Shown here piece by piece: positions 9,204 to 42,496 of a stretch of DNA of 64,000 nt. Position 1 is the first letter of the stretch. The number at the start of each line of letters is the position of its first letter. A model generated the notes under the pieces. The model was given only the letters and a program-made list of their open reading frames with translations. It was not told where the DNA came from and searched no databases. Source of the DNA: Natronobacterium gregoryi SP2. Its GTDB lineage: Archaea; Halobacteriota; Halobacteria; Halobacteriales; Natrialbaceae. A program made the position numbers and the translations under genes. The stretch covers positions 1,612,001 to 1,676,000 of the forward strand of contig NC_019792.1 in the NCBI RefSeq assembly GCF_000230715.2. Direction: 5' to 3'.

Positions 9204-9552
9204 GCGGTCGGATCAGCCGACGTACCTGGCCGGCACCGAGAGACCGAACTCCGGGGCCGACTCCGCGACGATCCCTTTACTCGTGTAAATGTCGGGCTTG
9301 TAGTAGAGTTCGTGCGTGATCCCGTACTCGTCCCGCAGGTGCTCCCTGACGCGGTCGACGTCGTCTTTTGCGAAGTAGTTCGGCGTGTAGACGGTCAGCA
9401 GGTAGTCGTCGTACATCTCGAGGTTGTCGTAGCCGAACGTCGTCATCGCCTTTGTCGCCCAGATGACGCCATCCCCCGCGTCGGCGACGAACTCGGGCCA
9501 CAGCTCCGCGATGCGCTCACCGGTGCCCGTCACCTGCCACTTGCCGAAGCTG

Positions 9553-10860
9553 ATGTACTACGCCTACAAGTATCGCCTCGAGCCGTCTGACGGCCAACGC
9601 GAGGAGTTGGACCGCCAGCGCGATATCTGTAGGCAACTATACAATCACACTCGCTACCGCCTCAACGAGTACCGAGAGAACCACGGCGAACTACCGTCCA
9701 TGACCACGCTTCGGTCGGAGCTACCTGGCCTCAAAAAGTGGTGGGACGAGCTCAATGACGTGTACTCGAAGGTACTCCAAACTGTCGTCGAACGATTCTT
9801 CAACAACCTCCGTAGCCTCTCCGCACTCAAAGAGAACGGCTACGACGTCGGCCAACTCAAGTGGAAGCCACCACGCGAGTTCCGCAGTTTCACGTACAAC
9901 CAGTCTGGCTTCGAGCTCGACAAGAAGGACGGTCAGACTGTCCTGTCACTCTCGAAACTTGCGGACATACCGATCCGGCTCCACCGAGAGATTCCCGACA
10001 ACGCCGCACTCAAACAGGTCACGCTCAAGAAGGAGCCAACGGGAGAGTGGTTCGCCACCTTCGGTGTCGAAGTCGACCGAGAGCCACCGCAAAAGCCCGA
10101 CCAGCCGACGGACGTCGTCGGGATCGACGTAGGCATCCTGAAGTACGCCCACGACACCGATGGTCACGCGGTCGAATCGGTTGACCTCTCGGACGAACGC
10201 GAACGGCTCGAGCGAGAGCAACGAAAACTCTCGCGCAAAGATCACGGCTCGAACAACTACGAGAAGCAACGCCGTCGCGTGGCCGAGTGTCACGCCGACC
10301 TGAAGAACAAGCGCCGAGACTTCTTGCACAAACTCTCGAACTACTACGCTCGAGAGTACGATCTAGTCGCGATCGAAGACCTTGACGCAAAAGGCTTGGT
10401 CGAACTTGACGGCAACTCTCGGAACCGTGCTGGAGCAGCGTGGGGGACGTTCCTTCAGATGCTCGAGTACAAGTGCGAACGCGAGGGAACGCGCTTCGTG
10501 GCCGTCGATCCGGCTGGAACGACCAAAGAGTGTGCGGCTTGCGGTGTGTCGAGCGAGAAACCGCTGTGGGTCCGCGAACACGCCTGTCCGTCGTGCGGGT
10601 TCACCGCCGATCGGGACTGGAACGCGGCCTGGAACATTCTTTCTCGCGGGATCAAGCAGGTAGGAGCGGGACGCTCCGAATCAACGTCCTCAGAATCGCC
10701 GTGCGATTCTGATGGGCTGCGAAAATCGCGCAGCGATTTTCGAACGCCTGTGGAGACTGCGCTCCCTACGGGAACCACCTCGGTTCCTGCAAAGCGCGTC
10801 GTGGAAGCAGGAAGCCCCATCTGCTCACGGGCGCGAAGCGCCCGTTCGCATGGTCCGTGA
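9553..10860 (+). CDS. tnpB: TnpB RNA-guided endonuclease (IS1341-type)
   Basis: A 435-residue TnpB. The N-terminal OrfB_IS605 helix-turn-helix region is followed by the RuvC fold: Asp in GIDVG (about residue 191), Glu in IEDL (about 274), the zinc motif CAAC...CPSC (about 320-347), and the last catalytic Asp in DRDWNAAW (about 353). All catalytic residues are present, so the protein may be active. The C-terminal tail (TSVPAKRVVEAGSP) overlaps the guide-RNA scaffold, as usual. Residues about 378-396 are an extra Ser/Asp-rich stretch encoded by two short palindromes. A longer upstream reading is open but falls in the DUF1917 target sequence, so the start at 9553 is used. Confidence 0.9.
   Translation: MYYAYKYRLEPSDGQREELDRQRDICRQLYNHTRYRLNEYRENHGELPSMTTLRSELPGLKKWWDELNDVYSKVLQTVVERFFNNLRSLSALKENGYDVGQLKWKPPREFRSFTYNQSGFELDKKDGQTVLSLSKLADIPIRLHREIPDNAALKQVTLKKEPTGEWFATFGVEVDREPPQKPDQPTDVVGIDVGILKYAHDTDGHAVESVDLSDERERLEREQRKLSRKDHGSNNYEKQRRRVAECHADLKNKRRDFLHKLSNYYAREYDLVAIEDLDAKGLVELDGNSRNRAGAAWGTFLQMLEYKCEREGTRFVAVDPAGTTKECAACGVSSEKPLWVREHACPSCGFTADRDWNAAWNILSRGIKQVGAGRSESTSSESPCDSDGLRKSRSDFRTPVETALPTGTTSVPAKRVVEAGSPICSRARSARSHGP
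10691..10741. repeat. Two adjacent 21-bp palindromes inside the tnpB 3' end
   Basis: 10691-10711 is a hairpin with arms CAGAATCGC and GCGATTCTG, and 10721-10741 is a second with arms GAAAATCGC and GCGATTTTC. They add residues between GAGRSES and TPVETALP, a joint that is continuous in the family as I know it. They precede the conserved RNA scaffold and could be extra stem-loops of the overlapping RNA or a small palindromic insertion. Confidence 0.6.
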
Positions 10861-10867
10861 GACCTTA

Positions 10868-12019
10868 ATGATCAAGATAACTTTTGCAAATATGGACTGA
10901 GGAACTGGTCGATCCAAGACTTGGCGAATCCAAGTCGATCGGTGAGGGTGTTGAAGAGGCGGCGAGCGAGAGTGCGGAACGCGCTCTCGCTCGCCACGAC
11001 GATTGGTGAAGCATTCCGTTTGAGCACTTTCCAGACCTGCTCGATTGGATTGAGATGCGGTGAACCGACCGGAAGAAAGACGAGATCGATACCGAGTTGA
11101 TGTGCGCGCTTGCGCGTGTGCTCACAGATGTGAGACGAGAAGTTGTCCAAGACGAGCAGAATCCGCGTTCCCGGATTCTGCTCGCGGACCTCCTCCAATA
11201 GGGCACAGATGTTCTCTTTCGATTGATCTTCAGGAAAGGTCAGGACACTTTCGCCGTTGAGCGTATAGCACCCGACCGCTGGTTCGTCAAGCTTCACCAG
11301 CGGTCGTTCGAGTGTCGGATCATCGACGTACCACAGTCGATGCGAATTGTCGTATGGTTGCGGATGAGAAGCGTCACAAAAACCGACGATAGTTCCTCCA
11401 TCTGTACAGATATCGTCGTCGAGAACCCAGCCTTCGTCCTCATCCTCGGGACGCTTGTTATGTGCTGTCTCTGTTTCCTCGTCGAACGCGTCTGCGACGC
11501 GTTCTTCGAGGATTTCATCTGCATTTTCTGGCCGTGAGGGACGTTTTGGACGTGGTTTAGCGTAAGACAGTCCGAGATTCCGGAGGAATCGACCGAGATA
11601 ATCCGGATGGTACTCAACATCGAACTCTTCGTCCAAGAGCTGGTGAACTTCCTGTGCTTTCCAGGGCTGTCCCTCCCGGAGAAGTTCTAGAAGACACTCT
11701 TGTTCCTCGTCACCGAGCTTCGGGGGCCTTCCGCTCCCGAAGTTCGGTGTCAACTGACCCAGCCCGCCATCGTTCCATCGACGTGCCCAGCGACTTCCAG
11801 TCGACGCAGATTTCCCAACGTCGTCGGCTGCTTCTTCGTACGTTGCACCCTTGTAGAGACGTTTGACAAAGGTGAGCCGCTTGACGACCTTTGGATCGTC
11901 TGCTTCGTCCAGCAGACGATCCAACTCCTCCTCGCTCAGATGACGAACGAGCTCGCCCCGCCGGTCTCCTCCCATTACCCCGTTCGTCTTAGCCCACGCC
12001 CAAAACTTCTGTCACTCAT
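10868..12019 (-). mobile_element. IS630-type insertion sequence
   Basis: An 1152-bp element flanked by TA at 10866-10867 and 12020-12021, the TA duplication typical of the IS630/Tc1 group. Imperfect terminal inverted repeats of 19 bp: ATGATCAAGATAACTTTTG at the left and ATGAGTGACAGAAGTTTTG read inwards from the right (13 of 19 identical). One transposase gene fills it on the minus strand, with its stop codon inside the left repeat. It sits in the loop of a hairpin of the tnpB element. Confidence 0.85.
10872..11975 (-). CDS. IS630 family transposase
   Basis: A 367-residue DDE transposase. The N-terminal third carries two helix-turn-helix modules of the IS630 type (YKGATYEEAADDVGKS and the GSGRPPKL linker to a second HTH), followed by the catalytic core with Asp in GFCDAS, Asp in LVLDNFSSH and Glu in HLNPIEQVWK. 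No frameshift or stop interrupts it, so the element may still be mobile. It is transcribed opposite to the tnpB gene that surrounds it. Confidence 0.92.
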   Translation of the reverse strand: MGGDRRGELVRHLSEEELDRLLDEADDPKVVKRLTFVKRLYKGATYEEAADDVGKSASTGSRWARRWNDGGLGQLTPNFGSGRPPKLGDEEQECLLELLREGQPWKAQEVHQLLDEEFDVEYHPDYLGRFLRNLGLSYAKPRPKRPSRPENADEILEERVADAFDEETETAHNKRPEDEDEGWVLDDDICTDGGTIVGFCDASHPQPYDNSHRLWYVDDPTLERPLVKLDEPAVGCYTLNGESVLTFPEDQSKENICALLEEVREQNPGTRILLVLDNFSSHICEHTRKRAHQLGIDLVFLPVGSPHLNPIEQVWKVLKRNASPIVVASESAFRTLARRLFNTLTDRLGFAKSWIDQFLSPYLQKLS

Positions 12020-12164
12020 TACGGTCTCACGCTACCCTCAAGGAGCGAACGGCGTCAGCCGTGAGCGAGTAGGGTGGGGTAGTTCACATGCTATCGGGTT
12101 TTGCCACCGTGTTCTCGGAGAAACGTGGCGTACGCATTTGTGCCGGAAGACGGTACGTGTCGGT

Positions 12165-12674
12165 ATGTTCAGACGTGCTCGAGAGCTCGGCCCGCCGGTG
12201 CTGGTCCCGCTGGCCTGGGGATTCGTGACTGCTGCCTATCTCGGCGTCGTCGCCGAACGAACGCTGTTCGTCGCCCACGTCGTGATGGCCGTCTTTCTGG
12301 TCGGCTTCGCGGCGACCGGCTACGCCGACATGCGCGAGGGCCTGCTCCAAACGTGGTGGTGGATCGTCGCCGTCGGCTCGCTCGTCACGCTCTGTGGCGT
12401 CGTCGGCCTCTGGCTCGAGCCGACGAATCGGCTGCTCGAGGCCGTCGCCCTCTTTGGCTGGATCGGCCTGCCGGCGATCGGGTTCGTCGAAACCGGGCGT
12501 CGGGTCGGCCGAGGAACTCGGATCTACGTGGCCGGAGCCGCTGGCTGTCTGTTCGGTGCGATCCTCTTTGCCGGCGGCCAGTTCTGGTCCCTCGAACTGA
12601 CCGCGGCCGTGGGCCTCGCTCTCGTCGGCGTCGGACAGACGGCGGGGATTGTCGATGCGGCAGTCCGCTACTGA
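12165..12674 (+). CDS. Haloarchaeal integral membrane protein, unknown function
   Basis: 169 residues with a short basic N-terminus (MFRRARELG) and about five or six hydrophobic segments, among them LVPLAWGFVTAAYLGVV, HVVMAVFLVGFAATGYA, WWWIVAVGSLVTLCGVVGLW and the last near residues 130-165. I recognise no named domain. Its ATG is only 27 bp from the start of the divergent DUF1917 gene, so its promoter must lie within or beyond that broken gene, or the true start is further in. Function unknown. Confidence 0.65.
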   Translation: MFRRARELGPPVLVPLAWGFVTAAYLGVVAERTLFVAHVVMAVFLVGFAATGYADMREGLLQTWWWIVAVGSLVTLCGVVGLWLEPTNRLLEAVALFGWIGLPAIGFVETGRRVGRGTRIYVAGAAGCLFGAILFAGGQFWSLELTAAVGLALVGVGQTAGIVDAAVRY

Positions 12675-12777
12675 ACCGATAGCGACACGCATCACGCCCC
12701 GCTGTGAGCCGATCGATCCGTCGATGTCCCTCCCTTCTCCTGCCCCCATCCTGGGAGACCCTGGAGAGAAATCGACG

Positions 12778-41820: not shown

Positions 41821-41850
41821 TGATACGGCTGACTGACAGTAATCCGTATC
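41821..41850. repeat. TGATACGG palindromic repeat, copy C (internally deleted)
   Basis: TGATACGG directly joined through CTGACTG to ACAGTAATCCGTATC: both outer arms kept, the inner 50 bp missing. It lies directly before a solitary tnpB right end. Confidence 0.7.
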
Positions 41851-41854
41851 AAGT

Positions 41855-41967
41855 GTCTGCAAAGCGCGTCGTAGAAACGGGAAGCCTCGGGGTCGTTCGA
41901 GAGAGCGAAGCTCCCTCGTGATGACGAGAATTTTCGATTCTCGAACCACTTGGCCCCGAGGCGATTC
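41855..41967 (+). repeat. Solitary tnpB element right end (reRNA-like relic), copy 2
   Basis: Starts CTGCAAAGCGCGTCGTAGAA and GGGAAGCC, the conserved scaffold of the tnpB element at 9.5 kb. It ends in a perfect 9-bp stem (GCCTCGGGG / CCCCGAGGC) followed by GATTCAC. No tnpB coding sequence remains. The final TCAC supplies, on the minus strand, the TGA stop codon of the ribosomal protein gene. Bases after 41967 (the guide position) are the 3' end of that gene. Confidence 0.75.
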
Positions 41968-42496
41968 ACGCGATCAATTTCTCTTCGCCTTTCTCGACCA
42001 CGATCCGACACGGCGGCGTGATCTTGTTGTAGGCGCGACGGAACGCTTCCTTGGCGAAGTCGGCGTCGTCGACGTCACACCAGATCGTGAAGATGCGGTC
42101 GCCAGCGTCGATTCGCGCGGCGGTGCCGACGATTTTCCCGAACGACTGGCGCATCCCGTCGGAAACACGGTCTGCACCCGCACCGGTCGCCTGCTTGTTC
42201 TCCCGAATGACGTTGTGGGGGAACTTACGCAGGATCATCTTGTAGTTACCCTCGCCGGCGTTTTTCAGCATGTAGCGGTTGGCCGAGAGACGTGAGGACT
42301 CGAGTGAGCCGTGACGGATCTGGACTTCTTCTTCCGTGACGAGGCTGATCTGGACGGGGTAGTCCTCGGCCTCGGCACCGATGTCGCCCATCTTGTGCTG
42401 TGCAATCTTCGAACCCGGGATGCCAGTAATGTATTCACGGCGCGTGTAGGCCGGCTTACTGATGTCCCGGTACATCGAGGCGGGTTTCTCGGACAT
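41966..42496 (-). CDS. rpl10e: 50S ribosomal protein L16 (archaeal L10e)
   Basis: 176-residue large-subunit protein near the tRNA sites and the peptidyl-transferase centre. [19 protein letters not shown] at the start, [16 protein letters not shown] and the end [10 protein letters not shown] are the family's landmarks. It is a single gene away from the ribosomal operons, as usual in haloarchaea. Its TGA stop lies within the end of a solitary tnpB right-end relic. Confidence 0.96.

What the first reader, a model, noticed from the sequence alone, without database searches (positions are those of the whole stretch)
9213..12137. Precise nested insertion: tnpB element in a DUF1917 gene, IS630 in the tnpB element
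Removing 9553-12087 restores an uninterrupted 129-codon DUF1917 frame across the joint (AKPDS, Ile, SFGKW). This fixes both ends of the tnpB element to the base: it begins with the tnpB ATG and ends with TTCAC, with no target duplication. Removing 10868-12019 (with one TA) restores a perfect hairpin in the right end. The order of events is readable: tnpB element first, IS630 later. An element whose first base is the start codon leaves the promoter to the target, here on the opposite strand.
Basis: seen in the sequence. Interest (0 to 1): 0.72.

Follow-up and report, generated by a model that had tools for sequence, protein, structure and literature searches.

The report
Transposon that inserts at hairpin tips
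The nested insertion is half real: the tnpB element did not land cleanly in the DUF1917 gene (it is a left-truncated copy at a rearranged junction), but the IS630 element inside it belongs to a haloarchaeal group that inserts at the exact centre of DNA hairpins without copying the expected 'TA' target, which is unusual for this transposon family.

Summary
Overturned for the outer insertion, extended for the inner one.

(1) Same-genus DUF1917 orthologues are about 180 aa. Homology to the window stops at 9547; their N-terminal ~69 aa are absent from this genome. The right flank 12088-12776 is not DUF1917: it carries a membrane-protein gene found elsewhere in relatives.

(2) Relatives fix the tnpB element's true ends. 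The right end TTCAC is correct. The left end is TTAGCTGAATyGAGGCGCTAAG, 283 bp before the tnpB ATG; the window copy lacks its left 278 bp.

(3) The IS630 insertion (10866-12021) is real. Its relatives hit the centre of perfect palindromes: 39 of 54 distinct targets score >=8, against 1.1% in mispaired controls. Stems share no sequence.

(4) Unoccupied homologous sites for about 13 targets lack the central TA that a TA duplication needs (two pairs have 99-100% identical flanks). TA therefore travels with the element.

(5) These IS630 elements recur in 3' hairpins of tnpB elements and their deleted derivatives.

I found no earlier report of hairpin-tip targeting by an IS630-family element; nearest precedents are IS1272 and Haloquadratum SMR-A repeats.

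The parts
9213..9547 (-). 3' remnant of the DUF1917 (Pfam Bles03) gene; homology to intact orthologues stops at 9547
9548..12087 (+). tnpB-only (IS1341-type) element, 5'-truncated by 278 bp, interrupted by IS630 at 10866-12021; intact right end ...TAGTTCAC
   Evidence: sister copy L002 and relatives L197-L225
9553..10860 (+). tnpB, 435 codons, open frame
10683..10746 (+). ~60-nt double-hairpin insert inside the tnpB 3' coding region, in frame; absent from most relatives (span includes the flanking AACG repeats)
10818..12032 (+). ~60-nt double-hairpin insert in the element's right end (10818-10865 plus 12022-12032), split by IS630; absent from most relatives
10856..10864 (+). left arm CGTGAGACC of the hairpin that IS630 hit
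10866..12021 (-). IS630-family element, 1,156 bp including the terminal TA at each end
10872..11975 (-). IS630-family DDE transposase, 367 codons
12023..12031 (+). right arm GGTCTCACG of the hairpin that IS630 hit
12083..12087 (+). TTCAC, the conserved right terminus of the tnpB element
12130..12674 (+). membrane-protein gene (CDS from 12165) with conserved upstream DNA; sits at other loci in relatives, so foreign to the DUF1917-rfc locus

Best explanation
Outer junction (shown): a 5'-truncated tnpB element abuts the 3' remnant of DUF1917. The DUF1917 5' part and the element's left 278 bp are missing, and a membrane-protein gene lies on the other side; this is a rearrangement or deletion, not a clean insertion. 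Inner junction (shown): an IS630-family element sits at the dyad centre of a hairpin. This haloarchaeal IS630 clade inserts at the centre of unrelated perfect palindromes (arms about 8-15 bp) without duplicating TA, and the terminal TA dinucleotides travel with the element. Inferred mechanism: the DDE transposase dimer joins both element 3' ends to the tips of a cruciform or hairpin. The two attacks fall at or within one base of the dyad centre, so the product has a stagger of 0 (even loops), or -1 or perhaps +1 (odd loops), instead of the usual 2-bp TA stagger. Inferred consequence: because tnpB elements and their deleted derivatives carry such hairpins in the 3' (probable omega-RNA) region, they are recurrent homes for this IS, and an insertion there should split the guide RNA.
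For: DUF1917 orthologues and synteny in G001-G003. True element ends in about 28 relatives. Seven of eight full-length ~100% IS630 copies in this genome in perfect palindromes. 39 of 54 distinct targets score >=8, against 1.1% of mispaired flanks, 19 of 5,150 TA sites and 0.09% of all window positions. No sequence consensus in the stems. Unoccupied sites lack the required central TA: L100/L254, L027/L039, L028, L129, L157, L166, L026, L030. Recurrence in tnpB-derived elements: L026, L032, L030, L067 and ten copies in one repeat with tnpB-element ends in Natrinema gelatinilyticum, both orientations. Named clade members ISNpe13 and ISHti6 also sit in palindromes.
Against: About 15 of 54 targets do not score as palindromes; some look recombined (L033) or have uncertain ends, but some may be genuine exceptions. 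Most unoccupied sites are paralogous repeats rather than isogenic strains; only L100/L254 and L027/L039 are near-perfect pairs. Odd loops behave inconsistently (centre base lost in L026, L027, L030; apparently duplicated in L139, L266). One diverged homologous hairpin (L013) has a TTAA loop. L107 shows a changed half-loop. The cruciform step and the effect on the guide RNA are untested.
Confidence: 0.8

Rival explanations
1. One reading: a tnpB element that begins at its own ATG inserted precisely in DUF1917 with no target duplication, and an ordinary IS630 later inserted at a TA in its hairpin.
For: The joined frame is open, the right end TTCAC is correct, and the IS630 is flanked by TA on both sides.
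Against: Orthologues have a different N-terminus and the right flank is foreign DNA. Relatives have 283 bp before the ATG. Sister loops are TTC, without TA.
Confidence: 0.02
2. Ordinary TA-duplicating IS630 with a strong preference for TA in the loops of palindromes; the unoccupied sites compared here differ from the true pre-insertion sites by later loop changes.
For: TA is present at both ends of the copies, as for canonical IS630/Tc1-mariner elements (PMC2170065). Several comparisons are between paralogous repeats, and one diverged hairpin has a TTAA loop.
Against: None of about 13 compared targets has an unoccupied form with TA at the centre. L100/L254 (99-100% flanks, intact coding frame) and L027/L039 (100% flanks) would both need independent 2-bp or 1-bp changes exactly at the centre.
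Confidence: 0.12
3. Capture at breaks: palindromes are cut at hairpin tips by a host nuclease (Mre11-Rad50/SbcCD type) and the excised IS630 is joined into the break, so the specificity is the host's and not the transposase's.
For: Would explain centre insertion, absence of duplication and occasional loss of the centre base.
Against: Stems and element ends are precise in most cases, without the ragged deletions expected of break repair. The trait follows the transposase clade and is absent from the few non-haloarchaeal IS630 copies checked.
Confidence: 0.1

Closest known systems
IS630 / Tc1-mariner family (ISY100, IS630; ISfinder-named ISNpe13 and ISHti6 in the same clade)
   Same: NCBIfam IS630 transposase, DDE_3 domain, about 1.15 kb, short inverted repeats, TA at both borders
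   Different: Targets the centre of palindromes whatever their sequence, and the TA is not a target duplication where this could be checked
IS1272 (IS1182 family), inverted-repeat-replacing transposition (PMC5678879)
   Same: Target recognised as an inverted repeat (potential stem-loop) of unrelated sequence; no target duplication
   Different: Different transposase family; IS1272 replaces the whole stem-loop, whereas here both arms are kept and at most the centre base changes
Haloquadratum SMR-A repeats in near-terminal palindromes of IS605-type elements and PATEs (PMC3119063)
   Same: Haloarchaeal elements that recurrently insert within palindromes of tnpB-type elements, without target duplication
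   Different: SMR-A are about 110 bp with no transposase; the IS630 here is autonomous; whether they share terminal repeats could not be tested
IS200/IS605 family, tnpB-only (IS1341-type) elements of haloarchaea
   Same: tnpB, right end TTCAC, near-terminal palindromes
   Different: The window copy lacks its left end and carries two ~60-nt double-hairpin inserts

Membership tests
IS630 family | IS630-type transposase | tested here: met
   NF033545 transpos_IS630, 291 bits against a cut-off of 100; Pfam DDE_3
IS630 family | TA dinucleotide at both borders | tested here: met
IS630 family | the bordering TA is a duplication of a TA in the target | tested here: not met
   unoccupied forms of about 13 targets lack the central TA; mostly paralogous comparisons, two near-perfect pairs
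IS630 family | catalytic DDE/DDD residues in place | not tested
   only the domain match was obtained
IS200/IS605 tnpB-only (IS1341-type) element | TnpB protein | tested here: met
   NF040570 guided_TnpB 291 bits; Cas12f1-like_TNB and OrfB_IS605
IS200/IS605 tnpB-only (IS1341-type) element | conserved right end | tested here: met
   TAGTTCAC in the aligned relatives and the window
IS200/IS605 tnpB-only (IS1341-type) element | conserved left end | tested here: not met
   left 278 bp missing in the window copy: a truncated member
IS200/IS605 tnpB-only (IS1341-type) element | match to an Rfam omega-RNA/sotRNA family | tested here: not met
   no relevant match up to E 0.5 in the element loci; the omega-RNA reading rests on position only
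IS1182/IS1272 stem-loop-replacing elements | the whole target stem-loop is replaced | tested here: not met
   both arms retained at the hairpin targets
Haloquadratum SMR-A | shared terminal inverted repeats with SMR-A | not testable with these tools
DUF1917 gene precisely interrupted by the element | orthologue sequence continues across the joint | tested here: not met

The most novel reading that the evidence does not exclude
A clade of IS630/Tc1-mariner-type transposases has given up TA-duplicating insertion. It instead recognises the shape of extruded DNA hairpins (cruciform tips), inserting at the dyad centre with 0 or +/-1 nt stagger, and thereby repeatedly parks in and disarms the guide-RNA hairpins of TnpB elements.
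Probability: 0.55. Interest if true: 0.8.

Novelty: new variant of a known kind. Interest (0 to 1): 0.6.

Why it matters
If confirmed it would be, as far as I could find, the first structure-directed, TA-independent target mode in the IS630/Tc1-mariner group. It would offer a natural in vivo reporter of cruciform extrusion in archaea, and a mechanistic basis for the noted habit of haloarchaeal mobile elements to insert into IS605-type palindromes (PMC3119063). It also questions the assumption that TA at the borders of these elements is a target duplication, which affects annotation of their ends.

Tried and rejected
Rfam search for a known omega-RNA or other structured RNA in the element: nothing relevant. 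A general association of IS630 targets with double hairpins: not enriched overall (8 of 39 against 42 of 300 random positions), so double hairpins are only a subset of targets. ORF continuity across the joint as a test of TA duplication: inconclusive, because GC-rich DNA gives long spurious frames. Finding the membrane gene's ancestral locus in this genome: of the gene itself only the window copy matches. The original IS630 target papers (Tenzen 1990, 1991) are not held. Literature searches for hairpin or palindrome targeting by IS630 elements found no such report; absence from this library is not proof.

Full report
What was checked. The window is part of a 3.79-Mb haloarchaeal chromosome. 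Removing the IS630 element restores a hairpin CGTGAGACC-loop-GGTCTCACG.

Outer junction. In three same-genus genomes (L053-L055) the DUF1917 gene is about 180 codons and lies directly beside the rfc gene. Homology to the window stops at 9547. Orthologues continue upstream of GKW with about 69 residues (...EIDREALETETTIGKW) that bear no resemblance to MRTPRFSENTVAKPDS. A search of the genus finds in the window's genome only the 285-bp 3' part. The DNA right of the element (12088-12776) instead holds a membrane-protein gene with its upstream DNA, which lies elsewhere in relatives and is absent from the DUF1917-rfc locus there.

True ends of the tnpB element. A 98% sister copy (L002) lacks IS630 and aligns to the window only from 9548. 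Upstream of its tnpB it has a small ORF (MKRTTITLREDQHEWVQDNHLNLSSFVQEKLDELIEERES, no Pfam match) overlapping the tnpB start; other copies in the genome have, by my reading of their sequence, a tnpA or a DUF2080-like gene there (inference). Aligned relatives from many genera start at TTAGCTGAATyGAGGCGCTAAG, 283 bp before the ATG in L002, and end at TAGTTCAC, with unrelated flanks beyond. Most relatives whose right end could be read have one of about 63-70 nt. The window copy carries an extra ~60-nt double hairpin there, and another ~60-nt in-frame one in tnpB.

The IS630 element. The transposase belongs to NCBIfam IS630. The genome holds eight full-length copies at ~100% identity (plus a ninth at 95%); seven of the eight sit in perfect palindromes of 9-12 bp arms. 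Insertions from many haloarchaea were collected, with element ends set from terminal repeats and bordering TA only, not from the palindromes. Seventy-three usable sites give 54 distinct targets, of which 39 have a palindrome score of 8 or more. The same score is reached by 1.1% of mispaired flanks, 19 of 5,150 TA sites and 0.09% of all window positions (slightly different scoring). The stems share no strong sequence consensus (at most 0.31 bits per position), which points to shape rather than sequence. ISNpe13 and ISHti6 sit in such palindromes too, whereas six bacterial and Methanobrevibacter/Methanosphaera relatives show none at the best-supported ends (small sample).

No TA duplication. Unoccupied homologous sites are available for about 13 targets. 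In the best pair, G001 against G002 (99-100% flank identity), the filled site CTC[TA..TA]ACG corresponds to CTCACG inside an open epimerase-like reading. In a paralogous pair with 100% identical flanks (L027/L039), CTCCTGG became CTC[TA..TA]TGG. Other even loops are simply split at the centre (L028 T^T, L129 G^G, L157 TG^GC, L166 GT^CA). Odd loops lose the centre base (window TTC; L030 GAA, whose unoccupied relative lies in the window itself near 41,897) or appear to duplicate it (L139, L266). No unoccupied form matching a given target has the central TA that a TA duplication requires; one diverged homologous hairpin (L013) has a TTAA loop. The terminal TA therefore most likely travels with the element.

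Targets inside tnpB elements. The window copy and L032 occupy the same hairpin in two different tnpB subfamilies. L030 and L067 also lie in tnpB 3' regions. In Natrinema gelatinilyticum ten copies lie at one hairpin of a short repeat with tnpB-element ends (TTTTAGCTG...TAGTTCAC), in both orientations. Some of these may have spread as IS630-carrying repeats rather than by independent hits; the two orientations and two loop forms require more than one event. Haloquadratum SMR-A repeats were reported to target the same kind of palindrome (PMC3119063).

Mechanism and status. Shown: palindrome-centre targeting, absence of TA duplication at the sites where it could be checked, recurrence in tnpB-derived elements. 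Inferred: attack on an extruded cruciform or hairpin by the transposase dimer with a stagger near zero; splitting of the guide RNA. IS1272 of the IS1182 family is the nearest mechanistic analogue but removes the stems (PMC5678879). IS630 itself is reported to prefer TA in CTAG (title of Tenzen and Ohtsubo 1991 in the reference list seen; paper not held). Whether its sites also lie in inverted repeats should be looked up before claiming priority.

Noticed in passing
window 41837-41980: Another tnpB-element right end with a double hairpin (CGAGAGAGC-GAA-GCTCCCTCG), the unoccupied relative of the hairpin hit by the IS630 copy L030.
   Followed up: partly
window 10683-10746 and 10818-12032; L002, L003, L220, L238: ~60-nt double-hairpin inserts in tnpB elements (one in frame in tnpB) and at least one copy (L238) that I found outside an obvious tnpB right end; they may be tiny mobile repeats in their own right.
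   Followed up: partly
L117-L163 (Natrinema gelatinilyticum BND6): About 20 IS630 copies, ten of them at the same hairpin of a ~400-bp tnpB-derived repeat, with IS in both orientations and loops ATAC or GTAT, suggesting repeated insertion or inversion between the arms.
   Followed up: partly
L103, L113, L142, L144: Some copies of the 72%-identical IS630 subgroup carry extra AAATA/TATTT bases just outside one end, between the element and the palindrome arm.
   Followed up: no
L007 and L031: A second, unrelated-looking transposon (gene beginning MATLENVSVEDLRQ) abuts tnpB-derived hairpin sequence in both loci; it may also favour palindromes.
   Followed up: no
L033 (G000:C1:2105920-2107075): The one ~100% IS630 copy in this genome whose flanks do not form a palindrome; possibly a recombination product between IS copies.
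   Followed up: no
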